A stretch of DNA of 64,000 nucleotides from Chytriomyces cf. hyalinus JEL632 (Eukaryota; Chytridiomycota; Chytridiomycetes; Chytridiales; Chytriomycetaceae): the NCBI GenBank assembly GCA_025435555.1, contig JAIWWG010000111.1:26226-90225 (forward strand), given 5' to 3'. Each line of letters begins with the position of its first letter. Position 1 is the first letter of the stretch. A program made the translations under genes and the position numbers. The notes under the pieces are model-generated. The model was not told the origin of the DNA. It saw only the letters and a list, made by a program, of their open reading frames with translations, and made no database searches. Shown here in pieces: positions 5,931 through 62,293 of the stretch.

Positions 5931-6299
5931 CGCATTTTGATCCCCAAAACTATTTCTCACGCATCTTGTTCCCGAAACACTGTTTCTCACGCACCTTGAT
6001 CCCCGAACGCTATTTCTCACGCATTTTGGTCCCCGAAACGCTATTTCTCACGCATCTTGATCCCCAAACGCTATTTCTCACGCGTTTTGACCCCCGAAAC
6101 GCTATTTCTCACGCATTTTGGTCCCCGAAACGCTATTTCTCACGCATCTTGATCTCCAAACGCTATTCTCACGCATTTTGACCCCCGAAACACTATTTCT
6201 CACGCATTTTGGTCCCCGAAACGCTATTTCTCACGCATCTTGATCCCCAAACGCTATTCTCACGCATTTTGACCCCCGAAACGCTATTTCTCACGCATA
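5931..6299. repeat. 29-31-bp minisatellite with trimer higher-order pattern
   Basis: About twelve tandem units of the form CACGCATTTTGGTCCCCGAA plus ACGCTATTTCT. Units differ at the same few bases, and types alternate in a repeating three-unit order (TTTTGGTCC, TCTTGATCC, TTTTGACCC), seen three times from about 6020 to 6290. It lies between the two KDZ gene blocks. Open frames across it are a by-product of the repeat. Confidence 0.92.
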
Positions 6300-15949: not shown

Positions 15950-17014
15950 ATGGCCGCCGACACAACTCCAATCCCAGCAACGATGCAAGCCATCACCTTC
16001 AGCAAGTTTGGAGATTCCAGCGTACTTGAATACCAAACCATCGCTACACCACTTCTTACCGAGAAGGACAACACGGACTGCGTGTTGGTTCGCGTACACG
16101 CTGCCGGCGTGAACCCCGTGGACCACAAACTTCGTAAAGGCGAAATGACCGCGCTGGTCACTGTAAACTTTCCAGCAATCCCCGGTATCGACTACGCGGG
16201 TGTCATTGCTGCCGTACAGGCTGGATACTCGGGACCGCTGAAAGTGGGTGACCGCGTGTACGGAAAGACTGCCAATGTCCAAGACAAGGGCCCATATGCG
16301 CAGTACATTAAGCTCGATACAAAGGTGGATCTAGTAGTTCCGCTTCCAGCAAACGTTTCGTTCAATGATGCTGGCGGCGTTGCAGTCGTGGCGTTGACTG
16401 CATACGTGGGTCTTGTGCCGTACGGAGGACTTTCGAAAAACGTTGCTGAAAACGTAGGACGTAAAGTGCTCGTGATTGGCGCGTCAGGTGGAGTCGGCAT
16501 GTTCGTTGTACAGATGGCCAAGTTGCTTGGAGCGCACGTCACCGCCGTTGCATCTGGCAAGAACAAGGATTTTGTCCTCAACACCCTTGGAGCGGATGTC
16601 TTCTTGGATTACACGACTGCGCCGCTTACCGAGCGGTTATCCACCAAAAATGAATTTGACGTCATTTATGACACTGTGGCCGGCGACAAGGGTAAAAACT
16701 GGGAGCTAGCGCAGACCATTCTCAAATCAAGCGGTCTATTCGTGAGTCCAGTCCCACCGTTTGATGGACCCGTCAGTGTGGGCAACATGGCCAGCATGAT
16801 GGGAACTATGGCGTGGAGAGGTGTGACGAGTTCGCGGCGCTACAGATTCATTTCATCAGCCCCAGTTTCTGACTTTCCAATGGTTGCGGAGTGGATTGCG
16901 AACGGTAGTTTGAAGCTGGTTACGAGCGTGGCTCTTCCTCTTGCAGAAGCCAAAAAAGCGCAGGAGCTTAGCGAGACTGGACGCACGGTCGGAAAGATTG
17001 TGTTGAATCCTTGA
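15950..17014 (+). CDS. MDR-family NADPH:quinone oxidoreductase-like, copy 1
   Basis: A single-exon, fully open gene for 354 residues in the medium-chain dehydrogenase/reductase superfamily, closest in feel to quinone oxidoreductase / RTN4IP1-type proteins. The N-terminal GroES-like domain has LVRVHAAGVNPVDHKLRKG and GDRVYGKT. The Rossmann domain has the dinucleotide loop GASGGVGMFVVQMAKLLGA near residue 177. The structural-zinc cysteine cluster of alcohol dehydrogenases is not seen, which fits a zinc-free NADPH-dependent reductase. The substrate cannot be read from sequence. It is the intact member of three tandem copies. Confidence 0.88.
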   Translation: MAADTTPIPATMQAITFSKFGDSSVLEYQTIATPLLTEKDNTDCVLVRVHAAGVNPVDHKLRKGEMTALVTVNFPAIPGIDYAGVIAAVQAGYSGPLKVGDRVYGKTANVQDKGPYAQYIKLDTKVDLVVPLPANVSFNDAGGVAVVALTAYVGLVPYGGLSKNVAENVGRKVLVIGASGGVGMFVVQMAKLLGAHVTAVASGKNKDFVLNTLGADVFLDYTTAPLTERLSTKNEFDVIYDTVAGDKGKNWELAQTILKSSGLFVSPVPPFDGPVSVGNMASMMGTMAWRGVTSSRRYRFISSAPVSDFPMVAEWIANGSLKLVTSVALPLAEAKKAQELSETGRTVGKIVLNP

Positions 17015-17184
17015 GAAATGGTTATTTTGGGTGTCACATTTTTCGATCCTGCATACAGTTGTCACAGTAAACTATTCAATTCAAATTCACACCTGCCGTT
17101 GAACATTACGCGTGGAGCGCATACAATACATCAAACTGAGGATGACTTCAATTCCATTTATTTGTGCAAACATCAAACAAAGGA

Positions 17185-17455
17185 GGCACAAGGCAAAACA
17201 AAGGAATGGTAAGTCACATCTTTCATGTTGTCATTTGTTCGCTTCAGAAAGAGTGTAACCCTGCTAACGTTGCCAGGACTTTGGGCACCCATAAAACCTT
17301 CCCGTCTTCTTTGTAACAAGTTTCCGAACGCAAACTGGTTGCTGTCTGAAAATAAAAACGCGTGTTTCAGCGTCTCTTTTATCCCCGCCAGAGACAACCT
17401 TCGGCTTTTGTCCAAACCGAAAATCATTCACCCAATCTCGCAGCAGTGAGGGAAA
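17185..17455 (+). pseudogene. GT31 glycosyltransferase relic
   Basis: This short stretch matches the exon-intron-exon junction of GT31 copy 2 around 14565-14830. AAAACAAAGGAATGG and a GT donor are followed by sequence parallel to the HKNLPAFRLLYNKFPNADW exon, now with stops, then an AGACAACCTTCG segment parallel to the next exon start. It lies between oxidoreductase copies 1 and 2, showing that the two families were duplicated together or rearranged into each other. No coding capacity remains. Confidence 0.65.
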
Positions 17456-17638
17456 TGCAGCGCGTACTGGGCCTGGGACATTTGTTGAGCTGTGTTAATG
17501 CGGCTTGTGAATTACTAATACATGATTTCGAATCAGAGGTAACAGTGGGGGTATGGGGGTACTGACGCTGATCATTTTTGCAATGGTATCATAAACACAC
17601 GGTCTGTGTGAAGCAAGATTTGTTCTTTTGATTCGAAA

Positions 17639-18693
17639 ATGGCCTCTTCAGTCCCAGCAACAATGCACGCAGTCACCTTCAGCAAATACGGCGATTCCAG
17701 CGTGCTCGAACACGGAACCGTTGCAACTCCACTTCTTGCCGAGAAGGACACGAGCTGCGTTCTTGTTCGCGTGCACGCTGCCGGCGTTAACCCCGTCGAT
17801 TACAAAGTCCGCAGAGGCGACATGTCCGCAATGGTCGCTATGCCGTTCCCAGCAATCCTTGGTATCGATTACGCTGGTATCATTGCCGCCGTGCACGCTG
17901 GATACTCGGGACCACTCAAAGTTGGTGACCGCGTATACGGCAAGACTGCCGGTGTCCAGGGGAAAGGCACATACGCCGAATACGTCAAGATCGATACGAA
18001 ATTGGATTTGGTTGTTCCACTGCCAGCAAACGTTTCTTTCAACGATGCTGGTGGAGTTGGTGTTGTCGCGTTGACTGCATATGTGGGTCTTGGTGCCGTA
18101 TGGAGGACTTTCGAAAGATGCTGCGGAAAATGCTGGGCGCCGAGTCCTTGTGATTGGTGCATCTGGTGGTGTAGGGATGTTTGTTGTTCAAATGGCCAAG
18201 CTGCTTGGTGCTCATGTGACTGCCGTTGCATCTGGAAAGAACAAAGACTTTGTGATCAACACCCTCGGAGCGGATGTCTTCTTGGACTACACGACTGCAC
18301 CTACTCACGGAGCGACTATCCACCAAAGATGAATTTGATGTGATATACGACGCTGTGGCTGGCGACGATGGAAAGAACTGGGAACTGGCCCAAACAATTC
18401 TCAAACCAAGCGGCTTGTTCGTCAGTCCAGCAGCACCCTTTGAAGGTGGTATCAGTGTCGGTAATGTGGCCAAATTTGCGGGAACTCTCGCCTGGAGAGC
18501 TGTCATGAGTTCGCGTCGCTACAAATTCATTTCAGCAATCCCGGTTCCAGATTTTCCGCCAGTCGCAGAGTGGATTGAAAAGGGAAGCTTGAAACTCGTC
18601 ACAAGTGTGGCTCTTCCCCTCGCCGAGGCCAAAAAGGCGCATGAGCTGAGTGAGTCTGGACGTACAGTCGGAAAGATTGTGCTGAATCCTTGA
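17639..18693 (+). pseudogene. quinone oxidoreductase-like, copy 2 (two frameshifts)
   Basis: Closely related to copy 1 over the whole length and ending with the same TVGKIVLNP tail. One extra base near 18092 (TTGGTG where copies 1 and 3 have TTGTG) moves the frame before the dinucleotide-binding loop. A second extra base near 18301 moves it again before LSTKDEFDVIYDAVAG. Everything between and after stays readable in shifted registers, so inactivation, if real, is recent. Confidence 0.75.
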
Positions 18694-18978
18694 ATCAGCG
18701 TGTTTTGTTTTTCATCGTGTAGTTATGACAGTAAACTATTTCATGCTGCATGCCTGATTTTATACAAGTCGCGCTGGACTTCTGTAAAGGCATGTCTGTG
18801 ACACGCTCTGTGCTGAGTACCCGAACGGCGACCTGATGACGGAGAATTTTCATCAGCACCCAAAAATTTTGCTCAGGCTTTTTCAGGGTTTGGGAAAGAT
18901 ACGCGCTCACCGCTTGCGCTTATTCCTCCCGTGACGCATTTCCAACCAAAGAGCAAGAAGGGTTTGTTGGAACTTCAG

Positions 18979-18984
18979 TATAAA
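18979..18984 (+). promoter_or_regulatory. TATA box of oxidoreductase copy 3
   Basis: TATAAA about 45 nt before the ATG at 19029. Confidence 0.45.
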
Positions 18985-19028
18985 GATGGATCTGGAAACA
19001 CGCTTGTTGGAGCACAAATCCTTCCAAA

Positions 19029-20086
19029 ATGACCAACGACACTCCAATCCCAGCAATAATGCAAGCAATCACCTTCAGCAAGTACGGCGACTCCAGCGTG
19101 CTTGAACACCAGACCATTGCAACTCCGGCCCTGTCAGACAAGGACACAAGCTGCATCCTTGTTCGCGTACACTCTGCCGGCGTCAATCCCGCCGACTACA
19201 AGGTTCGTAAAGGCGACATGGCCACGATGGTCAAGTTGCACTTTCCAGCAATCCCTGGTCTCGACTACGCAGGAATCGTTGCCGCAGTTCACTCTAAATA
19301 CTCGGGGCCACTTAAAGTTGGTGATCGCGTGTATGGCAAGACTGCCGATATGCAGGACAACGGCACTTATGCTCAGTATATCAAGCTCGATACAAAGCTG
19401 GATTTGGTTGTTCCACTGCCGGAAAATGTTTCATTCAACGATGCTGGCGGCGTTGCAGTCGTGGCCTTGACTGCGTATGTGGGCTTGGTGCCTTACGGAG
19501 GTCTTTCGAAAAATGTTGCAGAGAATGCGGGCCGCAGAGTATTGGTGATTGGTGCATCGGGGGGAGTTGGCATGTTTGTTGTGCAAATTGCCAAGTTGCT
19601 CGGCGCTCATGTTACCGCCGTTGCGTCTGGCAAGAACAAAGGCTTTGTTGTCAACACACTCAAAGCGGATACCTTCGTCGATTACACTCTCTCACCGCTC
19701 GCACAACAATTATCCACCAAAAACGAATTTGACGTCATTACGATGCAGTGGCTGGCGACAATGGAAAAAACTGGGAACTCGCGCAAACCATCCTCAAACC
19801 AAGCGGTTTATTCGTGAGTCCAGTCCCGCCATTCGACGGACCCGTCAGTGTGGGTAACATGACCAGCATGGTGGGAACTATAACCTGGAGAGCCGTATCA
19901 AGTTCTCGGCGCTACAAATTCATTTCATCCATTCCAGTCTCTGACTTTCCTGTCGTCGCGGAATGGATTGCGAAAGGTAGTTTGAAGATGGTAACAAGTT
20001 TGGCGCTTCCTCTCGCAGATACCAGAAAAGCTCAGGACCTAAGCGAGACTGGACGCACAGTTGGAAAGATTGTGTTGAACCCTTGA
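19029..20086 (+). pseudogene. quinone oxidoreductase-like, copy 3 (one frameshift)
   Basis: The third tandem paralogue, starting MTNDTPIPAIMQAITF, with an intact GroES-like half and the loop GASGGVGMFVVQIAKLLGA. Near 19739 one T is missing compared with copy 1 (GTCATTACG against GTCATTTATG), which ends the first frame about 25 codons later. The remainder resumes as AGDNGKNWELAQTILK and ends TVGKIVLNP. A single-base change separates it from an intact gene, so sequencing error cannot be excluded. Confidence 0.75.
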
Positions 20087-30038: not shown

Positions 30039-32244
30039 ATGGACAACTTGCCCACCGAAGTGCTGGCGCAAATCTTTCTGCAGCTGGACCCGTTCGAGAT
30101 TGCAAAGTATCGACGAGTCTGCCAGCTCCATCAGCAACGTTTTGACGGCACATCCCTTCTCGAATCTGATCGGCCTGGTGAATATTGGGCAAATCTTCGA
30201 GCAAGTGGAAGTCATCTGTTTCGTTACGCCTGCATCGTTTGGGGAGGCCTTCTTGGCAAAAGCACAGAAACACGTGGACAATTTATGCAGAGCCTGGCAC
30301 ATTCAAGACGGCAGCCCGTGAGCAGTGCCAAGGTCCTCCCAATCCACCCCCTTGAGGCAATCAACGACGTATCCCTATTTGAGAAATTGAAGGATCGTAC
30401 CTTGTCTGGCCCCCTCCCGCGCGCTTTGGGCAACATGGCGAAACTCACAATTATGAATTTGAGTGGCCATTACCTGACCGGCCCTCTCCCGTCGGAATTG
30501 GGAAATCTCGTCAACTTGAGGACTCTGAGTCTCAGCCACATGCATCTTGAAAGTGCGATACCCGACAGTTTTGGGAATCTGATCAACTTGGAGGAGCTGG
30601 ATATGTCTGAAGCCAGGCTGATTGGTTCAATTCCTGCGAGTTTGGGGAATTTGATCAACTTGGTCAAGTTGAGTCTACGCCGCAACAACCTTTCAGGCAC
30701 GGTGCCAGATATGTTTGGAGGCATGACCAAGCTGCAAACTCTGATGTTGGAAAACAACAATCATTTAGAAGGGCCGGCTACCGCGATCCATCAGTCAATG
30801 CATGCAGCTGACGAGTCTGAAGTGCGAAGGGAATAGATTTTCGGGTTGTGTCCCTGAATCGATATTTCGACTGCCGTTGCTTCAGACCGTGAATTTTGGA
30901 AGCAACTTGATTATTTCCGAAACTCTGCCGACTTACCATGCGAGCGGCGAATTTATCGGTATGGAAGACGCGCGGGCTGACTTCCATTGTTAATGCTGAA
31001 TATGATCTGAAACAATTGTTCCATCTCCATTAGCGTCGTTCGATCTCAAATTACCGAATGTCGCGTTTAATCAACTTGATGAAGGCGCGGTCCAAGGAGA
31101 GGTTTCGCTAATTCTGTCACAGCTGGATCTTTCTCGTAACCAACTCTCGGGGACACTTCCAAACTACATCTCATTGCTGACAAGCCTCCAGAACCTGTAC
31201 CTGCATCAAAATAACCTCAACGGTCCGTTACCATCTGAAATTGGAAAGTTAGCGAAATTGGAGATCCTGTCACTCGCAAACAACAAAATCTCTGGTGAAA
31301 TTCCAGACTCCATATCCGGTCTTGACGCGCTGCAAAAGCTGGACCTCAGCTGTAACATGTTCAGCGGCAGTATTCCAGATTCAATCACCTCGCTTGTAAA
31401 TCTCACTTATCTGTTGCTGGAGAACAATGAGCTCAGTGGTCCGTTGCCCGCGGAAATTGGACTTTTAACTTCCCTCCAGTTTCTGAACCTCAGCCACAAC
31501 CGCTTCTGTGGCGAAATTCCAGAGTCCATACGAACCCTCGGAAATTTGCGAACTTTGGATCTGAGTCACAACCAGCTCTCTGGCGAGATTCCACCTGGAA
31601 TTACCATGCTCTCGAATCTCATCTCTCTTCAATTAAACAACAACAGTCTTTCGGGTCCAGTGCCTCCAGATATTGGAGGTTTAAGTCTGCTCTCTTTGGA
31701 CCTCAGCCACAATCGATTAACTGGTTTTGTGCCGGAGAGCGCTCTGTCGTGGCGTTTACGCTGCATTTGAATCATAAAAAGCTGTCGGGTCCGCTTTTCG
31801 AAATTTGGAGCAATGCGGTGGATTCAAACCCTGCATTTGGACCACAATAAATTCTCTGGCCACCTCCCACCAGATGCGCTCGGCCTGATGTGTCTAAAAA
31901 GTGTGAATCTCGGTTGCAATCAGTTGACAGGCCCTATTTCTGCGTTCATATTTTCCAACATGTACATCGAAAGCGTGGATCTGAGTGACAACAGTTTTAA
32001 CGGGACTCTTGCCTGGGAGTTTGGAGAAATGGAACGAATCAAGATGCTCAATCTACGCAACAACCAGTTGTGCGGCTTGATTCCCGAAAGTCTTGATAAC
32101 TGCAGAATGTTGGAGCTGTTGGATCTGAGCGGAAACGAATTTGAAGGGGATTTGCCGGAACGTTTTCAAACGCAGTCAGCGGACAAGTCGGGGATTTCTT
32201 TTAGGTGGGAGACTGAGAAAAGAACAGTCGCCGTCATCGCGTAG
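30039..32244 (+). pseudogene. F-box/LRR array copy B (frameshifted)
   Basis: Begins MDNLPTEVLAQIFLQLDPF. An extra base near 30127 (CTGCCAGCTCC) throws the linker out of frame until about 30310, where a small deletion restores it. Another extra C near 30777 ends the first half. The array intron is present (GTATGG donor at 30959, TTAG acceptor at 31033, 75 nt). The second half, from 31034, has clean repeats (NLYLHQNNLNGPLPSEIG onward) until a deletion near 31760, and a final open block to 32244 (DLSGNEFEGDLPERF). Parts are nearly identical to copy C. Confidence 0.82.
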
Positions 32245-32648
32245 TGCTCGTGTATATACTGGGGAAGTCTGAATAAATTGATCGATTGAACAATTCGGGG
32301 CGCTATCAAATCACAGGTTCTGCATTTCCACAGTTGAGATTTACTGCTGAGAATCGAGAGGCTAACTAAGTTGCGTGTCCGTGTCACCGAGAATGGATTT
32401 TGCTCATGTGTCCAGCAATCGATCCAGAGACTCTCTTGTATGCCATGGGAAGTCCGTTCTCTCGTCAGGTTGGCAGATTCGGGTTATTCGAAATACTGCC
32501 AAGTTTGATATTTGTGTTGAGGATTCGAGCTTGGTCAGGCCTCGGGGACCTCAAAAAAAGACCGCTCATAATAACAAACGGCCATACAAAGGAACGAAAC
32601 CCTCATGTTCAACAATTTGAAGTTCAAAAATCATAAAAAAACCAAGGC

Positions 32649-32659
32649 ATGGACAACTT
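32649..32659 (+). pseudogene. separated 5' start of F-box/LRR copy C
   Basis: ATGGACAACTT, in the same upstream context as the start of copy B, is cut here by the Plavaka-type element. Translation from this ATG now runs into the element and stops within about a dozen codons. The rest of the gene resumes at 38022. Confidence 0.85.
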
Positions 32660-32960
32660 CACCGCCAACGAAAAAACCGACCGATAACGGCCGCGAAAGA
32701 AATCGGAGCGGAATCGGCAAAGCTTTCGGCCGAAATCGGCGTCGGCCGGGATCGTCACCGATTCGGCAACGATGACCGGTTGATTTGCCTGTCAGTAAAC
32801 TGTTGAATAAACTGCTAAAAAACGGGCCGATTGGCGGAGAATAAACGGCCGCTTTTGAAATCGGCCGTTATTCGGTCGCATGACACTGAAGATTGTCGCC
32901 CGATTTTTAGCCACAGATCATCGGCGGATGAGCTGGAGAAAAACGGCCGTTTCATCGGCA
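32660..32960. repeat. left subterminal CGGCCGAT-rich block
   Basis: Repeated short motifs around AATCGGCCG, GATAACGGCCG and AAACGGCCG in both orientations, matching the composition of the right end (about 37835-38019). Likely transposase-binding sites, by analogy with CACTA elements. The stretch 32961-33567 has no supported gene. Confidence 0.75.
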
Positions 32961-33567
32961 GAAAAGCGGTGCTAGAGATAAAAGTGACAAAAAGGGGACT
33001 TGAACCAGCATACCACGCAGTGGATGCGAGGGTTCCCACGACTATCCTGCATGCCCAGTGACGATGGGACGGAATAGCTAATAGTGTGGAATGGCTCTGA
33101 GTACGAGGAGTTTTTCTGAGGATTGTCTTTAAGAGAATTAAGAGTTGTAAGAGAAGCTGCTTTATTCAAGTGAACGAGGAGCGCTTTAAATATTGAATTC
33201 CAGTTTTCTAAATAAAGAGTTTTCCAAAAATGTCGTGGGAAGTGGCGAGAGAGATTTCGACATGTCGAAATCCGGTTCCAAAAATGTTGTGAAGAACGGT
33301 TCCAAATATAGCTGAAAGGCGAGAGCGGTAGTTACGTGATCAGGCTGATTACGTAACAGAGGGCTTTGACAAGACTGAACATAAAACACTTAAAAGGCTG
33401 CGCTCTTATTTTGTGAGAGGATTTCATGACCAACCACTATTTGCCAATCAATTGCTCCACCAAATCATCTCCTTTCACCTTTGTTTTGCAACACTACATG
33501 GGCCTTGGACCTCAAGTGCTCAGACAGGCTCTCAATTCTTTATTGAATCAAAGAAGCAACAAACATC

Positions 33568-36494
33568 TCAAGCTTTTGAGAGTAAAAAGTCAAGGAACAC
33601 ATCTGTTTGGGCACTTCCAAGTGTGTGATGACATTCCATGCGAAAGGGATTTAGAAAATACGTGTTCAAAGTTGAATGTGCAATAGATCCATCTTGTCTC
33701 CAGCTGCACAAAAACTGCTCTTCCCAGCAGTCGTGACTGACATCTGCTTGGTCATTGATATTGCCAACAGGGACATAGAAGTTGTTGTGCAAACTACATG
33801 CACGTAATCTCCATGATGTTAACTGGCCGTTCAGCTCTAATTCTTGCATTAGACAAGTTTTGGTGTGCTCGTTATGTTGAATGACTTTTCCAATACGGCC
33901 CCAGTTGTCAAAAAAGAAGAATCTGCCAATCTGAATGCGAGCTCTTGATGGAACTGGCCTGATGGGAGGGAACAAATGCTTGACTATAATGGAATTTGCT
34001 CCAAGTTCAAGTAATCCAGGCCCTCCTCCTGATGCCCCTCGTAAATATGATACTGTCCCTTCCCGAATTGCAAATGCCCATGCCACATCTCTTGATGGTG
34101 AATGCCGATTTGAATTTGCTATGTCTTTGCGCACATCTCCATTCATTTGTTCTGGAACTTCAACAGCATACAGAGACAGTGGTCCCCAGATCCGGAAATT
34201 ATCAGGGAGATGAGAAAGTAGATGGACTTTGAGCTTGTCTTTTGCTGATGGCAGTGAAACATGGAACAGACGCTGAACTGCAATGGTAGCCTTTTGGAGA
34301 TGGCGGTACCTTAACTCAAAGTGTGGATACTTGGAATCATATGCCAGTTTCGTAAGAATTGCACCAGCAAGCCAAAGCCAAGTTAGATTTGGCTGAAGCC
34401 AAGGGAAGAATAATGGCCCTATTTGTGCAAGGCCCTTGAAGTCTTTTCCATTCATGCTTCCAATGTAGCGAGTCACTTGTTTTGATGACAAATGACAGTG
34501 TTGATAGGTTGAGATGATTGCAAATAGAGATGCAGCTCTGAGTTTGAGAGACCTTGACTTCAGCTTTTCTTTGGACTCTGTCCCCAAGTATTTCATGACT
34601 CCAAGTAACAGTGTATGGAGAATTTCAACTGGAGTTTGCGCATGAGGTGAAAAACCAGGGAGGGAGAGATAGATGTTGGCGTGCTCAGATGGAACAGTTA
34701 TCCCAGTTGCTTTTCTCAGAGACTCTGATTGTGTTTTGTTCATCTGTGCCATTCGAGACAGTACTTGCTTGGTTTCATATAACCATCGATAAGGATGAAG
34801 TTGCATGCAAGTGGATGGACTTCCAATAGGTGCAGTGCAAACTCGACAGTTGAAGTCACTTCGTGCTCCAGCTTGATGGCATATTTGGGCTGCACGTGGA
34901 TTATCCACAAGCATTGCAAGTAATTGTGAAACAACAATCACATCCTCTCCGGTGCTTGAGTCAAGTACTTTGATTCCAAGAGATAGAGGGCTGCCTGGTG
35001 ATTTATTCAGTACTGCAATGTCAAAATAAATACAGATTAATGTTACCTTCTCTCAAATCGTGCAAGACAACCTCAGCAATATCTGACCATGATCCAGTGT
35101 TTGTAGTGGCAGCAAAGTTGATATATCGAGGACCATAAAACTTGTGCGGAAGCAATGGAAATATAACGAAAAAGTTTTCAAAGTGGTTGTAGCGCTTGGT
35201 TGTGTTTCCTGAAGTTTCATCTGAGCTGCAGATGACTGGAAAGTTGATGACTTTCCGGCCATTTGCTGAACAAATTCAGTTACTATCTTCAAAATAAATG
35301 CTTGCACACAAACCTCGAATACTGAGATTGCCCCTTTGAACAAGTGTCATTGCATCCCCTGGATGCAGTTCAACTGTAGTTGTGAAGTTTTGCAACAACA
35401 CAGAATGGAAATGCTCAGCAACTTGCCCAAATGCCACAATACCAGGTTTTGGAAAACACTTAATAATGCCTTCTTCAAAATTGGGCATTACAACAGTATC
35501 TCTAAAAGTGATATCAGCTAAATCACTAAAAACATTTAAGGAAGATCTCACCCAGCGTAAAATCGAGTTGAATTGTTGTCCATCCAAAGGCAAGGCGCTC
35601 TCACAGAAAATGCTAATGACTCAAAAATTTCTTGTGGATGTGTTGATAACTGTGGACCATATCGGATTTCCTTTGCAATAGATGGTGTTGCAAACGCAGA
35701 TTCAATGAGCTCAGGAATAGGCCTGACAAAGATTTGAATGCCTGATGCAGATTTCCTTTCAATGGGCTGCACTTTGCAAAGCTTCTTGCGTAGCTTCAAA
35801 ATTGCATTCAAAGAAGGGCACTTGACTTGCAGCAGTTCAAATATTCCCCAGAGAAGTTTCATTTGAGTAATACTGATGCGGCGACGCTTAGCAAATAGCA
35901 GACTGAATAGCAGAGCATGTGTTCTTGATGGAAATGGGTAGAAATGGCTGGATCCAAAGTCAGAAGCTGCATCATCAGAGTCCATATCAGAACCATCATC
36001 AGAGTCCATATCAGAACCATCATCAGTGTCTGACAATTCCATGTCAGTTCTATCTGACTGATCAATACTGTTGCTGTCGCTTGTGCTGTGATGTTCATCT
36101 GGTCCAGCCACAATTGCGCATTGTTCTTCTGCTCTGACACTTTTGTCACTGAGACAATCATTGGAATCTGCTGGCAACAGATCTGTCAGTCCATTTTGTA
36201 AATTGCTAACCCAGTCAAAAAGCCTTTACCTGCTTCAGTCTCAGCAATCATATTGATGCACTCTTGGTTGAATGCAAGGCTGTCAAAACTTTGCTGAGCA
36301 GAGCTTGTACTCTTGCATGAATGCATACTCCAAGCATCATCTGATTCCGACTCATTTGTGCAACGCTGCAGATGATGGTTCAGATTCCTTGCCCAGCGTT
36401 TCCCAGCAAATGGCGTGTTGCAGTTTGGACATCTGTGCTGACTTTGATGCATGTTGGGCACAAATTGGGATGAATCACAGAACAAATTGGGCAT
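33568..36494 (-). CDS. Plavaka-like transposase
   Basis: Five exons on the minus strand: 36494-36230, 36182-35552, 35501-35314, 35265-35047 and 34994-33568 (the last acceptor could also be at 35013, same frame). They give about 909 residues. The start has a zinc-finger-like set, C22, C25, H41, C45. An acidic repeat (SDMDSDD) follows, then FYAGDTVVM, the core VICSSDETSGNTTK (probable first catalytic Asp), a CRVC pair, TPVEILHTLLLGVMKY, LPDNFRIWGPLSLYAVE and MNGDVRKDIANSNRHSPSRD, the last a hallmark of Plavaka transposases. Introns of 47-52 nt join exactly. The frame is undamaged. Confidence 0.85.
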
Positions 36495-36520
36495 GTCGGA
36501 ACAAATTGGAGCAAAGAAAA

Positions 36521-37650
36521 ATGAGCCTCAGAACTGATCAGCATGCAAGGGTGATCTGATACAGTGTATCTTCCACTGCACAGGGGTCAATCAGCTTTAC
36601 TTTCCAGGGATCTACTGGCCAGCCAGTTTCTTACCGCCCTCGTCATCAGGATGAAGAGTTTGACCAATTCAGCCCCCAACAAAGGGGACCTGCCAGATTC
36701 TCCAACTCACCTCTTCAGGCTGGTCCATCAACTCAGATTGGTATGTTGCCTTTCACTACATGATGTTTCTCACCTCACTGTCTCATTCAAATTCAGATAT
36801 GCAGCCCTTTGTCTCTGTGATCAGAGATCTGAAAGAACAGTTTCAAGAGCAGGCTGAATACAGTAACAGTGAAACCACAGCTTTGAGGCAGTCTATTGCT
36901 ATGCTCAGCAATAGCTTTGTGCCCAAGATGCGTGAGACAATTCCAAAAGCGTTGAGGACAGACATCAAACGTGCAAATGAGAAATATTTTGTCGCAACTG
37001 CCACCAAGTACGTTCTGAAACCAAATCTCACTAAGATAGAGGTGAAAACAAGTCCTATTGATATTCATCTTTATTAACTCTGCTTCTTCACATTCAGCAT
37101 CACCTTGAAACAGAATGGGGACCCTTGATTGCAACATACAATGAAGATCAGCGCACCATGTTTATTGAAGAGATCAAGAGCTCATTTCGAAGCGCTCGCG
37201 ACACTATGGTGAAGAAGGTGAGTTGATGGCATTGAGTATGAATGGCTCTGTTGTGCTGAACTAACTTTGCATTAATAGATCAAAGGACACTACAATAAAA
37301 ACACCGCTAATCTCACCCTTCAAAAATACGCTGTAGTTGTATTCGGTGATAGGTGCAAGTTGACGAATGACGTTCTGAAGCGTGCAGCGTTGATGGTAAG
37401 TGTTTCACGATGTTTCGCAATTGTGACACGAATATAAATACTCACCTTCACACAGCGCAGAGTCCGTGGTATGTTGAGGGTGAGGGTTCCCTACTTTGCG
37501 ATCCTCATCGAGGAGATGAGGCGCATTGCAGGTCTTGGGCCGGGGGGTCCTGCTGAACTGGAACGGATCAAGGCCTTAGATCTGGCAACATACACAGATC
37601 AGGGCCCACAGGCAGCCGCTGACTCAAATGATGAGAACGAAGGGGTATAA
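36521..37650 (+). CDS. Plavaka-element partner gene, unknown function
   Basis: Six exons (36521-36550, 36584-36740, 36797-37041, 37098-37217, 37279-37395, 37456-37650) with GT-AG introns of 33-61 nt yield 287 residues in one frame. The short first exon (MSLRTDQHAR) is the least certain. The protein has a Gln/Pro-rich start (FSPQQRGPARFSN), a helical middle (DLKEQFQEQAEYSNSE, FIEEIKSSFRSARDTM), basic patches (MRRVRGMLRVRVP) and an acidic tail (DSNDENEG). I recognise no domain. It starts divergently 26 bp from the transposase start, so the two probably share a promoter and may act together in transposition. Confidence 0.65.
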
Positions 37651-37834
37651 TCGCTGCTCACCTCAACAGCGGCATTGTTCCTTGCGACGGGTGGTCTTGC
37701 GACAGCTGGTCTTGCGACGAGTGCTCATTTTATACATAATAAATTTTTAACTTTACGAACGATAAATATTTTATTTTACTGCCCATAAATCCAGCTTTTG
37801 GGTTGACCGTTCATCGACTGGTTTGCAGATACGC

Positions 37835-38019
37835 GGCCGATATGCTTGCGAGATACGGCCGATAGGTTTCCGATGTTCGACCGATAAATCGGAAGAACAT
37901 CGGCCGAATGGCGTGAGCGTCCGGATCTCGGCCGATTTATCGGTCGTGTATCGTCGCCGCATCGTCGCCGTTTTCGACTGATAAATCGGCCGATTTCGCC
38001 CGTGAAAAGATTGGGGGTG
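37835..38019. repeat. right subterminal CGGCCGAT-rich block and terminal repeat
   Basis: Motifs CGGCCGATTTATCGG, GACTGATAAATCGGCCGA and GGCCGATATGC recur here, ending in ATTGGGGGTG, the right terminal repeat. It pairs with 32660-32960. Confidence 0.75.
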
Positions 38020-38021
38020 TT

Positions 38022-40193
38022 GCCATTCGAAGTGCTTGTGCATATCTTTCTGCAGCTGGACCCTTTCAAGATCGCAAAGTACCGACGAGTCTGCCACTCC
38101 TTCAACGACGTTTTGACGGCACATCCCTTCTCGAATCTGATCGGCCTGGTCAATATTGGGCAAACCAACCAGCAAGTGGAAATTGTCTGTTTCGTCACGC
38201 CTGCATCGTTTGGGGAGGCCTTCTTGACAAATGTACAGGAACACGGTGACGATTCATGCGGAGCTGGAGCATTCAAGAAATACCCATTAAGCAGCCTAAA
38301 GGTTCTTCCCATCCACCCACTTGATTCAATCAACGACGCTTCCCTGTTCGAGAAATTGAAGGGCCATATCTTGTGTGGTCCCCTCCCACGCGCTTTGGGC
38401 AAGATGAGGAAACTCACGATTGTGAATTTGATCGGCCATTACCTGACTGGACCTATCCCTTCGGAATTGGGAAATCTCGTCAACTTGAAGACTCTGAGTC
38501 TCAGTCGCATGCGTCTTGACAGTGCAATACCCGACAGTTTTGGGAATCTGATCAATCTGGAGGAGTTGGATATGTCTGAAGCCAAGTTGACCGGTTCAAT
38601 TCCGGCGAGTTTGGGGAACTTGATCAACTTGGTCAAGTTGAGTCTGCAGCGTAACGAGCTTTCAGGCAAGGTACCGGATATGTTTGGAGGGATGACCAAG
38701 CTGCAAACTCTTGTGTTTCACAACAACCATCTAGAAGGGCCGATACCGCGATCCATCAGTCAATGCATGCAACTGACGACTCTGAAGTGCGAAGGGAATA
38801 GATTTTCAAGTTCTATTCCAGAATCGATATTCCGACTGCCACTCCTTCAGTACGTGAGTTTTGGAAGCAACTTGATCATCTCCCAAACTTCACCAACTCA
38901 CAATACAAGTGGCGAATTTGTCGGTAAGGAAGAGACATGTCCTGACTTCCAATTAATTGACCTGAAACAATCACTCTGTCTCCTTTAGCATCGTTTGACC
39001 TCAAGTCACCAGATGTCGCGTCGAATCAACTTGATGAAGACACGGTTTCGCTGTTTCTGTCACAGCTGGATCTTTCTTGCAACCAGCTCTCGGGGATACT
39101 TCCAAACTACATCACATCACTGAAAAGCCTTCAGAACCTGTACCTACAAGAAAATAACCTCAATGGTCCGTTACCATCAGAACTTGGAAGGTTATCAAAA
39201 TTGGAGATCCTGACACTCGCAAACAACAAAATCTCTGGTGCCATTCCTGACTCCATATCCGGTCTTGCCGCGTTGAGAAATCTGGACCTTAGAGGCAACT
39301 TGTTCAGCGGCAGTATTCCAGATTCACTCACCTCGCTTGTCAATCTCACTTATCTGTTGCTGGAGAACAACAAACTTAGTGGTCCGTTGCCAGCGGAAAT
39401 TGGACTTTTAACTTCTCTCCAGTTTCTGGACTTCAGTCGCAACCACTTCTGCGGTGAAATTCCAGAGTCCATACGAACCCTCGGAAATTTGCGAAGGTTG
39501 GATCTCAGTCACAACCGACTCTCTGGCGAAATTATACCTGGAATTTTTATGCTCTCGCATCTCATCTCCCTTCAATTGAACAATAACTCCCTGATTGGGC
39601 CATTGCATGCAGATATTGGAGCTTTGACAGGGCTGACCACATTGGACCTCAGCCACAATCAATTGACGGGGTCCGTGTCGGAGATCGTTTTGCCGCGGCG
39701 TTTGAGCACCCTCAATTTGAATCACAACAAGCTGTCGGGTCCGCTTCCGAAATTTAAAGCTATCCGGTGGATTCAAACCCTGCATTTGGACCATAATCAA
39801 TTCTCTGGCCACCTCCCAGCAGATTCGCTCGGCCTGATGTGTCTGAAAAGTGTGAATCTCGGCTGCAATCAGTTGACAGGCCCTATTTCTGCGTTCATAT
39901 TTTCCAACATGTACATCGAAAGCGTGGATCTGAGTGACAACAGTTTTAACGGGACTCTTGACTGGGAGTTTGGAGAAATGGAACGAATCAAGATGCTCAA
40001 TCTACGCAACAACCAGTTGAGCGGTTTGATTCCCGAGAGTCTCGATAACTGCAGAATGTTGGAGCTGTTGGATCTGAGCGGAAACGAATTTGAAGGGGAT
40101 TTGCCAGAACGTTTCCGAACGCAGGCAGCGGACAAGTCGGGGATTCCTTTTCGGTGGGAGACTGAGAAAAGAACAGTCGCCGTCATCGCGTAG
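38022..40193 (+). pseudogene. F-box/LRR array copy C, body (5' end split off by transposon)
   Basis: Resumes at codon 4 (CCATTCGAAGTGCTT, PFEVLVHIFLQLDPF) right after the TT duplication. Exons 38022-38923 and 38989-40193, with a 65-nt GTAAGG...TTTAG intron, are fully open. Together with the 11 nt at 32649-32659 they total 2118 nt, exactly 706 codons, so the gene was intact before insertion. The protein has an F-box, a linker with VCFVTPASFGEAF, about eight repeats before the intron and about thirteen after it, ending RWETEKRTVAVIA. There is no in-frame ATG between the element and the F-box, so the body probably cannot be translated as before. Confidence 0.88.
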
Positions 40194-40563
40194 TGCTCGT
40201 GTATATACTGGGGCAGTCTGAATAAATTGATCGATTGAACAATTCGCGGCGCTATCAAATCACAGGTTCTGCATTTCCACAGTTGAGATTTACTGCTGAG
40301 AATCGAGAGGCTAGCTAAGTTACGTGTCCGTGTTACCGAGAATGGATTTTGCTCCAAGCGATGATTGCCCTGAAGAAGGAGGAATGGGTTTCGCGGAGCT
40401 GTTCGCACTTTCAGCACGAGTAGTTTGGGATTGCCCTTTATTTATTTTTTACATGCGGAGGCTGGAAGTTGGAATCAGCACATATGATCTTTGAACATCA
40501 TCCATCTCCTGAATCATGTTCAACATTTTCAACTTAACTTAGGAAAAAATAACTGGAGCTTGC

Positions 40564-42806
40564 ATGCGTCAACTGCTCGACGTGCCCATCGAAGTCCTGG
40601 TGCAAATCTTTTGGCAGCTGGAACCGTTCAAGATCGCAAAGTACCGACGAGTCTGCCGATCCTTCGACGATGTATTGACCAGGTCTCCCTTCTCGAACCT
40701 GATTGGCCTCGTTCACATTGGACACACCAACAGAGACTGGTCGATTGACAAACTGGATGTCTTCTGTTTTGTTACACCGGCGCGTTCGGGGGAGGCCTTC
40801 TTGGCAAACGTGCAAAAACATGTGGACTGTTCATTAAAATCAAGATACTTCCAGAAGTTCCCCGTGAGCAATCTGAATGTGGTCCAAATCAACCTTCTCA
40901 CAGCAACCGACGCAGTTTCGCTGGTTAAAACCGTCCAAGCCTCCGACTGGACAGGAACTTCCCGTTTGGCTGGTCCCCTGCCAAATGCGATCGGCAGCCT
41001 GAAGCAAATGACATCATTGGACTTTGGAGGCCATTTCCTGTCTGGCTCGATTCCGCAAAGTATCGGCAAACTGACAAAACTGACGGATTTGTATTTGGTG
41101 GGCAAGCACGTTTGTGGCCCCATCCTGTCCGAGTTGGCGAATCTCATCAATTTGACGAAACTAAACCTGAGTCGCACGCACCTTAACGAAACGATACCCG
41201 ACAGATTTGGGAACCTTGTCAACCTTAAGGTGCTAAGGATCCCCAGCGCCATGCTGACTGGACCCATTCCTGTGAGCTTTCGGAACTTGGTCAACTTGGT
41301 AGAATTGCGACTGCAAAGTAACGAGCTTTCAGGCACGGTTCCAGACGTATTTGGAGGAATGAGCAAACTACAAACTTTGATGTTGCACGACAACCATTTC
41401 GAAGGGCCTGTACCGCGATCCATCGGTGAATGCACGCAATTGACGACTTTGAAATCCGAACGGAATAGCTTTTCGGGCTCTATTTCTGAATCGATTTTCC
41501 GACTACCACTGCTTCAGTGTGTGAGTTTTGCAAGGAACTTTATCATCTCCGAAACCTCACCAACTTACAATTCAACTGGCAAATTCGTCGGTATGGAAGA
41601 CACACACCCTGACTTCCAATTGATTTATAAGTATGACCTCAACAAATCGTTTCGTTTCCATCAGCGTCGCTCGATCTCCAGTCACTAAATGTCGCGTCGA
41701 ATCAAATCGAAGGAGGGGTTTCGTTGTTTTTCTCACAGCTGGATCTTTCTCGTAACCAGCTCTCGGAGAGACTTCCAGACTATATCACATCGCTGATAAA
41801 CCTCCAGAAACTGTACCTGCAAGAAAATAACCTCAACGGTCCGTTACCACCTGAAATTGGAAGGTTATCAAAATTGGAGGTTTTTTCCGTTCGCAGGAAC
41901 CAATTCTCAGGCGCTATTCCTGCCTCCATATCCGGTCTTGGCGCGCTGCAAAAGCTGGACCTCAGCTGTAACTTATTCATGGGCAGAATTCCGGATTCAA
42001 TCGCATCGCTCGTAAATCTCACTTCTCTGTTGATGGAGAACAATGTGCTCAGTGGTCCATTGCCGGCGGAAATTGGACTTTTAACTGCTCTCGAGGTTCT
42101 AAAGCTTTGTCGCAACCGTTTCTGTGGTGAAATTCCAGAGTCAATACGACGCCTTGGAAATTTGCGAACATTAGATCTGAGTCACAACGAACTCTCTGGC
42201 GAAATTCCGCCTGGAATTTTCATACTTTCAAACCTATACACACTTCAATTGAACAACAACAACCTTGCTGGTTCATGCCATCCACGTATTGGAGCTTTGA
42301 CAAAGTTGGACACGTTGGACTTCAGCCACAATCAGTTAACTGGTTATGTGCCGGACAGTATTTTGCCGCGGCGTTTGAGCACGCTAAGTTTGAATCATAA
42401 TAAGCTGTCAGACCACAATGAATTCTCTGGCCACCTCCCAGCAGATTCGCTCGGCATGATGTGTCTGAAGAGTGTGAATCTCAGCTGCAATCAGTTGTCA
42501 GGCCCCATTTCTGCGTTCCTGTTGAATGTGTCCATCGAAATTCTGGATCTGAGCGGCAACAGTTTCAACGGTACTGTTCCCAGGGAGTTTGGGGACATGA
42601 AAAGAATCAAGACGCTTGACCTGAGCAACAACCAGCTGAGCGGGTTGATTCCCGAGAGTCTTGACAGGTGCTATGGGTTGGAACTGCTGGATTTAAGAGG
42701 AAACCAATTGGACGGGGATATGCCAGAACGTTTTCGAATCCAATCAGCGGACAAACTGGGGATTCCTTTTCGGTGGGAGGGAAAAAAAAAGAGTCCTGAA
42801 CCTTGA
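40564..42806 (+). CDS. F-box/LRR protein, array copy D (intact)
   Basis: The only array member with a start, stop and undamaged frame. Exons 40564-41590 and 41665-42806 flank a 74-nt intron (GTATGG...CATCAG) and give 722 residues. The F-box is at residues 1-45 (LLDVPIEVLVQIFWQLEPF, KYRRVCRSF). A linker with VFCFVTPARSGEAFL follows, then plant-type 24-residue LRRs such as LTSLDFGGHFLSGSIPQSIG. No signal peptide or membrane span is seen. It would fit an SCF ubiquitin-ligase substrate receptor in cytosol or nucleus; targets are unknown. Relative to copies C and H it lacks about 20 residues near 42408, an in-frame deletion that fuses two repeats (NHNKLSDHNEFSGH). Confidence 0.9.
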
Positions 42807-59980: not shown

Positions 59981-61727
59981 ATGCTCCAAGTCGAAGAAAA
60001 GTCCATCGAAATGCAACGCACGGCCAAGCAAGCGTCCAAGGTTCTCCGCGTCGAGTCCATGCAGAAGGACATTGTCCGCGTCGAGTACGCCGTCCGTGGT
60101 GAGATCGCCATCAGAGCCGAGGAGCTGCGCAAGGTATTACACACCCATCACACGCTTCTCACCCATGACATTCTAACCATCGAATCAACCCTCTCATCCG
60201 ATCAAAAGCAACTCACTGTCTCACCCAACTCGCTGCCGTTTACCCGAATCACAAACTGCAACATTGGAAACCCACAGCAACTTGCCCAGCGTCCAATCAC
60301 CTTCTTCAGACAGGTTGCTGCCTTGGTCGACTATCCCGATCTTCTCCGTAGCGAAAGCGATCTGTTCAAACCAGACGCGCGCGAGAGGGCCACAAAGTAT
60401 TTGGCGGCGATTGGCTCGGCGGGCGCTTACTCGCACTCCCAGGGTGTGCCCATTGTGAGACGGGAAGTGGCTGACTTTATCGAGAGTGAGTGATCGCTGA
60501 TGCCCTCTTTATCGTTCAACTAAACCCGATCGCTGTTTCAAGAGAGAGACGGCTTCCCTGCCGATCCCGAAAACATATTCTTGACGGCCGGGTAATTTTT
60601 AATGTTTGTGAGTCACCCATTTGAAACTAATCTCCTTCACGCGTGTCCAGTGCATCACCAGCAGTCCAACTCGTCCTGAACTCGCTCATTTCGCACCCAA
60701 AGGTCGGAATCATGATCCCCATTCCACAGTACCCACTGTACACGGCTTCCATCGCCCTCTTCAACGGAACTGCTGTTCCTTACTATCTCGACGAAGCCAA
60801 GAACTGGGGTCTCTCGAAAGAAGAGCTTGCAAGAAGTTTGGCCAAGGCCCGTAGCGAAGGTGTCGAAGTTCGTGCTCTCTGCATCATTAACCCGGGTAAC
60901 CCAACGGGCCAATGTCTGTCGTTGGAGAACATGAATGAAGTTGTCGAATTCTGCAAAAAGGAAAACATTGTGCTGTTGGCCGATGAAGTGTACCAGACCA
61001 ATATTTACAAGCCTGCTGAGCGTCCTTTCCATTCCTTCAAGAAAGTTGTGAAAAGGTGGGGAACTCATTTTTGATTTGTAAGAGATCTTCTTCGCGTTAG
61101 TAACAAATCTTGTTTGTATCCAGCAAGGGTCCAGAATACGACAACTTTGAACTCATCAGCTTCCACAGTGTCTCCAAAGGAATGGTTGGAGAATGCGGTC
61201 GTCGCGGTGGATACTTTGAATGCACCAACATTGACCCAGAAGTCATGGCGCAATTCTACAAGATTGCTTCCATCTCACTGTGCCCACCTGTCCACGGACA
61301 GCTCATGGTCGGACTCATGACCAACCCACCCAAAGAAGGGGACGCTTCGTACCCGGAATACCGCAAAGAAATGGACGACATTTACCAATCCTTGGTTCGC
61401 CGCTCCAACACGCTTGCGAAAGCGCTCAACAAATTGGAAGGTGTTTCTTGCAACGAAGCTGAAGGTGCCATGTACCTGTTCCCAACAATCACGCTCCCAC
61501 GTAAAGCGGTTGAAGCGGCGAAAGCGCTTGGAAAGCAGCCAGATGACATGTACTGCATGGAGTTGTTGAACGAGACCGGTGTGTGTGTCGTTCCTGGATC
61601 AGGGTTCTGGCAAAAGGAAGGAACGTGGCACTTCCGATCCACTTTCTTGGCACCAGAGAATCAGATGGGAGAGTTTGCCGAGAGTTTGGCGCGGTTCCAT
61701 GAAAAGTTTATGAACAAGTACCGTTGA
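59981..61727 (+). CDS. alanine aminotransferase
   Basis: Five exons (59981-60133, 60209-60489, 60545-60589, 60651-61055, 61124-61727), 495 residues, the usual length for this family. It interconverts alanine plus 2-oxoglutarate with pyruvate plus glutamate using pyridoxal phosphate. Visible hallmarks: YAVRGEIAIRAEELRK, NCNIGNPQQL, PITFFRQVAALVDYP, GAYSHSQGVPIVR, PIPQYPLYTA, INPGNPTGQCLS, LADEVYQTNIY, then FHSVSKGMVGECGRRGGY, with the cofactor lysine at about position 313. The C-terminus VPGSGFWQKEGTWHFRSTF is typical. No clear mitochondrial presequence is seen. The first intron (75 nt) is stop-free and in frame, so it could be mistaken for coding. AATAAA signals follow the stop. Confidence 0.95.
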
Positions 61728-61849
61728 TCAGAATGCTGTTCCTGTTCCCGCTCTGTCGTAAATAAAGCATTTTAAGTGTGTCGTAAATAAATTTAGTGGT
61801 GCCCCAAAACGTGTGTCCCAATTCAAAATTACCTGACAACCAAACAACC

Positions 61850-62293
61850 ATGGCCGAGATTGGAGCACAACTTTGGGAGCTATGGGCCCCATACCACGAA
61901 ATCCTGGCACAAAAGATCATGGGCCCCGTGAACGGATACATGGTCATCATGATCTCAATCCAACTGCTGATCCGCCTCTGGGGTACCTCGTCAAGCGGCA
62001 AAGTCGAAGCCAGCCACATTCTCGTCAAGGACGAATCCAAAGCAAAAGAGCTGCGCGAAGAACTCGTGAAAGCCGATGGAGACCCAGCCCTGTTTGCGAA
62101 ACTGGCCGAGAAACACAGCACATGCCCATCAGGGAAGAAGGGTGGATCGCTGGGAAGCTTTGCAAAGGGAAGCATGGTGCCCGAGTTTGACAAGTACTGC
62201 TTTGACCCGGAGACAAAGGTGAACCAGGTTTCGCAGCCAATCAAGACTCAGTTTGGAAGCCATTTGGTTATGGTGACAAAGAAGCCAGAGTAA
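61850..62293 (+). CDS. parvulin-type peptidyl-prolyl isomerase with membrane anchor
   Basis: A single exon of 147 residues. The first half has an N-terminal hydrophobic helix (about residues 24-46, NGYMVIMISIQLLIRLW). The second half is a parvulin rotamase domain: EASHILVKDESKAKELREEL, FAKLAEKHSTCPSGKKGGSL, GSFAKGSMVPEFDKYCF, and the final strand QFGSHLVMVTKK. It would catalyse cis-trans isomerisation of peptidyl-prolyl bonds. The membrane helix suggests an anchored form (mitochondrial or endoplasmic reticulum; not decidable here). The start ATG has a good context (CAACCATGG), and an AATAAA follows the stop near 62342. Confidence 0.88.
   Translation: MAEIGAQLWELWAPYHEILAQKIMGPVNGYMVIMISIQLLIRLWGTSSSGKVEASHILVKDESKAKELREELVKADGDPALFAKLAEKHSTCPSGKKGGSLGSFAKGSMVPEFDKYCFDPETKVNQVSQPIKTQFGSHLVMVTKKPE

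What the first reader, a model, noticed from the sequence alone, without database searches (positions are those of the whole stretch)
32649..40193. A 5.36-kb Plavaka-type transposon splits an F-box/LRR gene in codon 4
ATGGACAACTT at 32649-32659 and CCATTCGAAGTG from 38022 are the two sides of one gene, shown by paralogue B reading ATGGACAACTTGCCCACCGAA. Between them lies an element with CACC-type inverted ends and a TT duplication. Removing it with one TT leaves 2118 nt, an exact 706-codon open frame with one intron, so the host gene was intact when hit and has not yet decayed. The insertion is probably recent.
Basis: seen in the sequence. Interest (0 to 1): 0.82.

Follow-up and report, generated by a model that had tools for sequence, protein, structure and literature searches.

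The report
Transposon splitting a fungal F-box gene
A 5.4-kb cut-and-paste jumping gene with two apparently intact genes of its own has landed in the fourth codon of a probably fungal F-box/leucine-rich-repeat gene, probably recently; this is a clean example of an ordinary kind of event.

Summary
The insertion is real. A 5,360-bp element (32660-38019) with ends CACC(G/C)CCAA...TTGG(G/C)GGTG sits between two copies of TT, in codon 4 of an F-box/LRR gene. Paralogue B (30039) shows the uninterrupted site with one TT. The host frame is otherwise open (706 codons with stop, one 65-nt intron). The element holds two divergent predicted genes with introns (910 and 287 aa) and dense CGGCCG subterminal repeats, a layout like CACTA/EnSpm.

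The label 'Plavaka-type' does not hold as tested: Pfam's Plavaka model gives no match, and the ends are neither published Plavaka type. CAC...GTG ends lean to EnSpm, but the 2-bp duplication differs from the 3 bp given for fungal EnSpm. The safest filing is the wider CMCT clade, and even that rests on ends, duplication length and a loose motif; no relative was found in three collections, none meant for fungi.

'Recent' is supported by the lack of any stop or frameshift. The event is ordinary; the subfamily may be undescribed.

The parts
32649..32659 (+). first 11 nt of the split F-box/LRR gene (gene D): ATG GAC AAC TT
   Evidence: matches paralogue B at 30039
32658..32659 (.). left copy of the 2-bp target-site duplication (TT)
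   Evidence: B has a single TT here
32660..38019 (.). complete DNA transposon, 5,360 bp, CACCGCCAA...TTGGGGGTG
   Evidence: only one copy in the window
32660..32668 (+). left terminal inverted repeat CACCGCCAA
38011..38019 (-). right terminal inverted repeat, CACCCCCAA on the minus strand
32688..32949 (.). left subterminal repeats: 6 CGGCCG hexamers
37834..37992 (.). right subterminal repeats: 5 CGGCCG hexamers, with CGACCGATAAATCGG-type repeats in both orientations
33568..36494 (-). transposase candidate, 910 aa, 5 exons: 36494-36230, 36167-35552, 35501-35314, 35265-35047, 35012-33568; all four introns GT-AG; later in-frame ATGs (36452, 36326, 36251) are possible starts too
   Evidence: open frame under hand-placed introns; GT-AG check; no transcript evidence
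36521..37650 (+). second protein of the element, 287 aa, 6 exons: 36521-36550, 36584-36740, 36797-37041, 37098-37217, 37279-37395, 37456-37650
   Evidence: open frame under hand-placed GT-AG introns; stop coordinate; no transcript evidence
38020..38021 (.). right copy of the target-site duplication (TT)
38022..40193 (+). rest of the split gene D: F-box and LRRs; intron 38924-38988; stop at 40191-40193
   Evidence: Pfam F-box-like 1.5e-5, LRR_1 2e-19 on 38020-38922
30039..32244 (+). paralogue B, closest relative in the window (86.9% identity), uninterrupted at codon 4 but, against D, with single extra bases near 30125, 30293, 30309, 30778, 31795 and a 4-base gap near 31757
   Evidence: positions as MAFFT placed them
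40564..42806 (+). paralogue E, open throughout: intron 41591-41664 (74 nt) at the same place as D's intron gives 722 residues

Best explanation
[quoted passage not shown] Shown: precise ends, duplication, empty site in a paralogue, an otherwise open host frame, two open frames inside the element under predicted GT-AG introns, dense subterminal repeats. Inferred: the 910-aa minus-strand protein is the DDE transposase; the 287-aa protein may bind the subterminal repeats, as TNPA does in Spm/En; the insertion removed the normal start of the F-box part and is recent; the element can still excise or move.
For: Ends and duplication. Element open frames: (4 of 4 introns of the transposase and 5 of 5 of the second gene are GT...AG, as I placed them). 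Subterminal repeats: 11 of the window's 21 CGGCCG lie in the two 300-bp ends; 11 observed against a mean of 0.57 and a maximum of 5 in 2,000 dinucleotide-preserving shuffles of those ends. Residues named for CMCT transposases by PMC12730594 (three catalytic D, D, E; 2 C and 3 H; passages) can be placed at D372, D466, CRVC 485-488, H562, HLLSH 693-697, E714. DUF4218, a domain of plant CACTA ORF1 (PMC8978399, passages), is weakly matched around HLLSH...E (E 0.17). Recent: no stop or frameshift in D; under neutral decay the chance of that falls to 0.086 at 1% and 0.025 at 1.5% divergence if frameshifting indels are 0.08 per substitution (my assumption), and to 0.1 at 3% on stops alone. D's own branch is richer in synonymous changes than B's (42 S: 33 N against 29 S: 46 N plus 1 stop; 151 of 265 differences could be polarised; Fisher P 0.049 without the stop), so D was under constraint for much of that time.
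Against: No transposase model matches above cut-off. The DUF4218 hint appears only in a 125-aa segment that I chose around the motif; the full protein, the 480-aa exon and a 392-aa segment holding the same stretch did not show it. No relative in IMG/VR, GTDB genomes or PLSDB, none of which is meant to hold fungi. A looser D-D-CxxC-H(3-4)H-E pattern also occurs in 34 of 500 shuffled versions of the protein, and in the real one it first matched from another D (285) than the one I placed, so the motif is weak. The structure prediction of the largest exon failed (mean pLDDT 34.2). Other copies of the element could not be sought: no whole genome is held and the window has one copy. The constraint test is borderline and B and D may have exchanged sequence.
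Confidence: 0.88

Rival explanations
1. It is a true Plavaka element, as the first reader says (a narrower reading inside the CMCT one).
For: 2-bp duplication fits Plavaka (2 or 3 bp; PMC12730594 passages); the CMCT residues can be placed; stretches such as TPVEILHTLLLG look to me like Plavaka proteins (recalled, from no call).
Against: PF18759 (Plavaka, 325 positions) is not among the matches at E<=10 for the full protein, the large exon or three segments. Ends CACC..GGTG are neither TGT..ACA (PlavakaA) nor CATCA..TGATG (PlavakaB).
Confidence: 0.4
2. It is a fungal EnSpm/CACTA element proper (also inside the CMCT reading).
For: CAC..GTG ends, the signature given for fungal EnSpm in PMC12730594; subterminal repeats; two-gene layout; weak DUF4218 match in one chosen segment (E 0.17).
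Against: Duplication is 2 bp, not the 3 bp given there for fungal EnSpm; no other CACTA domain such as Transposase_21 was matched.
Confidence: 0.35
3. Gene D still makes a product: a near-cognate start (CTG 37978, GTG 38002, TTG 38011 or GTG 38017, in the element's last 132 nt) gives an F-box/LRR protein with a new N-terminus, or the first in-frame ATG (38404) gives an LRR-only protein, so the open frame reflects continued selection and not youth.
For: The frame is open from 37888 through the junction into gene D; the first in-frame ATG after the junction is at 38404, before the LRRs that Pfam matched.
Against: No in-frame ATG between 37888 and 38404, so the F-box would need a non-ATG start; there is no transcript evidence either way.
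Confidence: 0.15
4. Assembly artefact or chimera of two paralogues.
For: The gene lies in a tandem array of similar copies; B and D are 94-98% alike in five 100-column blocks at their 3' ends.
Against: An exact 2-bp duplication and matched inverted ends at the junctions, with both gene sides matching B up to the junctions, would not be produced by a random misjoin.
Confidence: 0.03

Closest known systems
Plavaka (PlavakaA and PlavakaB), fungal CMCT transposons (PMC12730594, passages seen)
   Same: 2-bp target duplication; D, D, E with CxxC and HxxxH can be placed; found in a genome that looks fungal
   Different: ends CACC..GGTG instead of TGT..ACA or CATCA..TGATG; no match to Pfam PF18759
Fungal EnSpm/CACTA (PMC12730594, passages; CNIRT6 of Cryptococcus, PMC12810828, passages)
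   Same: CAC..GTG ends; subterminal repeats and two open frames, as described for full-length CACTA elements (PMC8978399, passages)
   Different: 2-bp rather than 3-bp duplication; no significant match to CACTA transposase models; CNIRT6 has 24-bp inverted repeats beginning CACTG, here about 9 bp beginning CACC
Plant Spm/En (PMC2613891, passages seen)
   Same: two products, subterminal repeats that one of them binds in Spm/En
   Different: in Spm/En the two products come from alternatively spliced transcripts; here two divergent genes; the second protein shows no named domain
CNEST of Cryptococcus neoformans (PMC12810828, passages seen)
   Same: CMC element with 2-bp duplication
   Different: TA duplication, 33-bp inverted repeats, about 7.2 kb

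Membership tests
CMCT clade | 5'-CA..TG-3' ends in most cases | tested here: met
   CACC...GGTG; feature from PMC12730594
CMCT clade | 2-5 bp target-site duplication | tested here: met
   TT, pinned by paralogue B
CMCT clade | DDE transposase with CxxC and H(3-4)H between second D and E | tested here: inconclusive
   residues can be placed, but a looser pattern occurs in 34 of 500 shuffles and no homologue or structure confirms it
Plavaka | match to Pfam PF18759 | tested here: not met
   no match at E<=10 for full protein, large exon and 3 segments; HMMER filters may lose weak matches
Plavaka | ends TGT..ACA (A) or CATCA..TGATG (B) | tested here: not met
   CACC..GGTG; definitions
Plavaka | 2-bp (A) or 2-3-bp (B) duplication | tested here: met
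   TT
Plavaka | transposase falls in the Plavaka clade of a tree | not testable with these tools
   no reference Plavaka protein turned up in the collections on hand
EnSpm/CACTA | CAC..GTG ends | tested here: met
   definition
EnSpm/CACTA | 3-bp duplication (fungal EnSpm as described) | tested here: not met
   2 bp
EnSpm/CACTA | Transposase_21 or DUF4218 domain | tested here: inconclusive
   only DUF4218 at E 0.17, 12.2 bits against a cut-off of 27, in one of three segments; not in the full protein or the large exon
EnSpm/CACTA | subterminal repeats near both ends | tested here: met
   11 CGGCCG in the two 300-bp ends, shuffle mean 0.57, max 5 of 2,000
F-box/LRR gene family | N-terminal F-box followed by LRRs | tested here: met
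   F-box-like 1.5e-5, F-box 5.2e-5, LRR_1 2e-19 on 38020-38922

The most novel reading that the evidence does not exclude
The element represents an undescribed CMCT lineage, intermediate in features between EnSpm (CAC..GTG ends, subterminal repeats) and Plavaka (2-bp duplication), with its own end signature CACC(G/C)CCAA, a CGGCCG-based subterminal code, and a compact divergent two-gene core whose first possible start codons lie 26 bp apart and whose second protein has no known domain.
Probability: 0.35. Interest if true: 0.45.

Novelty: new member of a known kind. Interest (0 to 1): 0.3.

Why it matters
It gives a base-exact, complete copy of a CMCT-type element with its empty site shown by a paralogue, so ends and duplication length are fixed from one locus; both are used to class these elements. 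It also shows an F-box/LRR array in which copies have been lost by indels and now one by transposition. For a specialist in fungal transposons it is a useful type specimen; for others it is ordinary.

Tried and rejected
Relatives of the transposase: the search for related loci with the 480-aa large exon in IMG/VR found no pattern match; in GTDB genomes 9 stretches matched a pattern and 0 of 9 were confirmed; tblastn on PLSDB found nothing at E<=1. A degenerate DNA pattern for TPVEILHT hit 3 IMG/VR contigs; tblastn of the whole transposase against the file of the three loci gave only 8-10-residue identities at the pattern and three other chance-level matches (best E 0.27). A longer version hit 0 GTDB contigs. 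PDB sequence search: two esterase sequences at E 0.7, chance. Structure of the large exon: mean pLDDT 34.2, not used for any fold search. Other matches below cut-off that I take as chance: ELO at 0.0079 on a frame outside my exons, PCSK9_C3, PaaD zinc ribbon, Rad50 hook and Sgf11 at 0.04-0.21, ING 0.64 on the 287-aa protein, and a flavorubredoxin model at 0.0078 (15 bits, cut-off 711) and HpaR at 0.11 on it. Second copies of the element in the window: none. Normal-intron reading: rejected, since the six other copies with an aligned 5' end (A, B, E, F, H, I) lack the insert. Age from the two inverted repeats: not possible, they are only 9 bp. Papers: 9 of 10 searches used; 'chytrid' with 'Plavaka' gave 0 papers, 'chytrid', 'F-box', 'leucine-rich repeat' and 'expansion' gave 1 irrelevant paper, 'Chytridiomycota' with 'CACTA' and 'transposon' gave 1. 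Passages of PMC9674265 and PMC11244446 were seen and gave no end or duplication data for Plavaka. No paper was read whole.

Full report
What was claimed and what is there. The sequence bears this out. The element runs from 32660 to 38019 (5,360 bp). Its first 9 bases and the reverse complement of its last 9 agree at 8 positions (CACC[G/C]CCAA), and the same TT stands on both sides (32658-32659, 38020-38021). CACCSCCAA occurs only at these two places in the window, in opposite orientation (by count alone not unusual, 23 of 100 shuffles had two or more). Among 26,280 random position pairs that shared a 2-bp flank, none had an inverted repeat of 8/9. One coordinate is off by one: after the second TT comes G at 38022, and CCATTC starts at 38023.

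Why these are the two sides of one gene. Paralogue B begins at 30039 and reads through the site with a single TT. The 25 bases up to the left junction agree with B at 23 positions. The 100-column block that spans the junction matches at 73 of 91 ungapped columns, the block before it at 48 of 81. From the right junction on, gene D aligns with B over 2.3 kb at 86%. With the flanks joined and the 65-nt intron 38924-38988 removed the frame has 2,118 nt, 706 codons with the stop, and no internal stop. Six other copies in the window with an aligned 5' end (A, B, E, F, H, I) carry no such insert, so it is not an ancestral intron.

The host array. Between 26.4 and 50.6 kb there are several F-box/LRR copies and fragments. 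E is open throughout, with an intron at the same position as D's (41591-41664, 722 residues). H and I could be kept open only with introns placed elsewhere by search, and I shows frame changes in the tblastn pieces, so I leave their state open. D was therefore one of few copies with a plainly open frame when it was hit.

The element's genes. On the minus strand, placing four GT-AG introns of 62, 50, 48 and 34 nt by eye gives a 910-aa frame from 36494 to 33568 (check). On the plus strand, five GT-AG introns of 33-61 nt give a 287-aa frame from 36521 to 37650. The two first possible start codons lie 26 bp apart, in divergent orientation; later starts are possible for the transposase. These models are predictions; no transcript was available. 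The 910-aa protein has a CxxC...HHxxxC cluster near its N-terminus and an acidic repeat. Residues fitting the published CMCT pattern can be placed: D372, D466, CRVC at 485-488, H562, HLLSH at 693-697, E714. A looser pattern of this kind also occurs in 34 of 500 shuffled proteins, and in the real protein it first matched from D285, so it is only supportive.

The element's ends. CGGCCG occurs 21 times in 64 kb; 6 are in the left 300 bp of the element and 5 in the right 300 bp. Shuffles of those ends give a mean of 0.57 and at most 5 in 2,000. The 300-bp limit and the hexamer were chosen after seeing the sequence. In plant Spm/En, TNPA binds subterminal repeats and both TNPA and TNPD are needed for transposition (PMC2613891, passages); by analogy the 287-aa protein may do the first job. 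This is inference: nothing in Pfam or NCBIfam matches it above a cut-off.

Which family. PMC12730594 (passages) gives PlavakaA as TGT..ACA with 2-bp duplications, PlavakaB as CATCA..TGATG with 2-3 bp, fungal EnSpm as CAC..GTG with 3 bp, and unites them with others in a CMCT clade with mostly CA..TG ends and 2-5 bp. This element has CACC..GGTG and 2 bp, which fits CMCT but none of these subgroups fully. Pfam holds a Plavaka model (PF18759), and it does not match, whereas the KDZ model does match another transposase in this window (PF18758, 5e-14), so the scan itself works on this genome. The only hint of family is DUF4218 at E 0.17 over the HxxxH...E stretch, in one 125-aa segment that I chose; longer queries holding the same stretch did not show it. 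DUF4218 belongs to plant CACTA ORF1 (PMC8978399, passages). I scanned 15 element-derived queries, some overlapping, in Pfam, and other matches at that level are plainly chance, so the hint is weak. I therefore file the element in CMCT and leave Plavaka against EnSpm open.

Age. There is no long terminal repeat to date. The host frame shows no stop or frameshift. If it has decayed neutrally since the hit, that has probability 0.086 at 1% and 0.025 at 1.5% divergence with an assumed 0.08 frameshifts per substitution, and 0.1 at 3% on stops alone. Of 265 D-B differences (120 synonymous, 145 not, in codons without gaps), 151 could be assigned with E and I both as outgroups: 42 synonymous and 33 non-synonymous on D's branch, 29 and 46 plus one stop on B's (Fisher P 0.049 without the stop). 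With I alone the counts are 59:51 and 43:64 plus one stop (not tested). This is borderline, but fits D having been functional for most of that time. A rival, continued use of part of the gene from a non-ATG start or from ATG 38404, is not excluded.

Mechanism. Most likely, in steps: the transposase recognises the CACC ends with help from proteins on the subterminal repeats, cuts, and joins to a TT target with a 2-bp stagger; repair duplicates TT. Shown here: the product of that reaction. Inferred: the proteins' roles. The effect on the gene is loss of its normal start; the next in-frame ATG (38404) is the 129th codon from 38020 and would omit the F-box.

Organism. No tool named it. Short GT-AG introns and the KDZ transposase suggest a fungus; I suspect a chytrid because plant-like LRR F-box arrays are familiar to me from there (recalled, from no call).

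Noticed in passing
window 2297-4980, +: A second DNA transposon gene: KDZ transposase (PF18758, E 5e-14) in the second of two adjoining open frames of 290 and 604 aa.
   Followed up: partly
window 31879-32405 and 39828-40355: The 3' ends of B and D, including the 3' flank, are 94-98% alike in five 100-column blocks (29 of 32 in the last, short one), while the blocks of the gene body before them are 76-93% alike: looks like recent gene conversion or unequal exchange.
   Followed up: partly
window 26474-50540, +: Tandem array of F-box/LRR copies, several with frame changes or reduced to fragments (A, B, F, I and others), one plainly open (E).
   Followed up: partly
window 5927-6298: Tandem array of a 31-bp unit (12.3 copies), also read as a 91-bp unit (4.1 copies).
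   Followed up: no
window 15950-19817, +: Three tandem zinc-binding-dehydrogenase-like genes; the second and third open frames are short (234 and 262 aa against 354), so they have introns or are broken.
   Followed up: no
window 35970-36030: 24-bp tandem repeat inside the transposase frame, coding for an acidic DDGSDMDS repeat.
   Followed up: no
window 61110-62293, +: Class I/II aminotransferase fragment followed by a parvulin-type (PPIC) prolyl isomerase.
   Followed up: no
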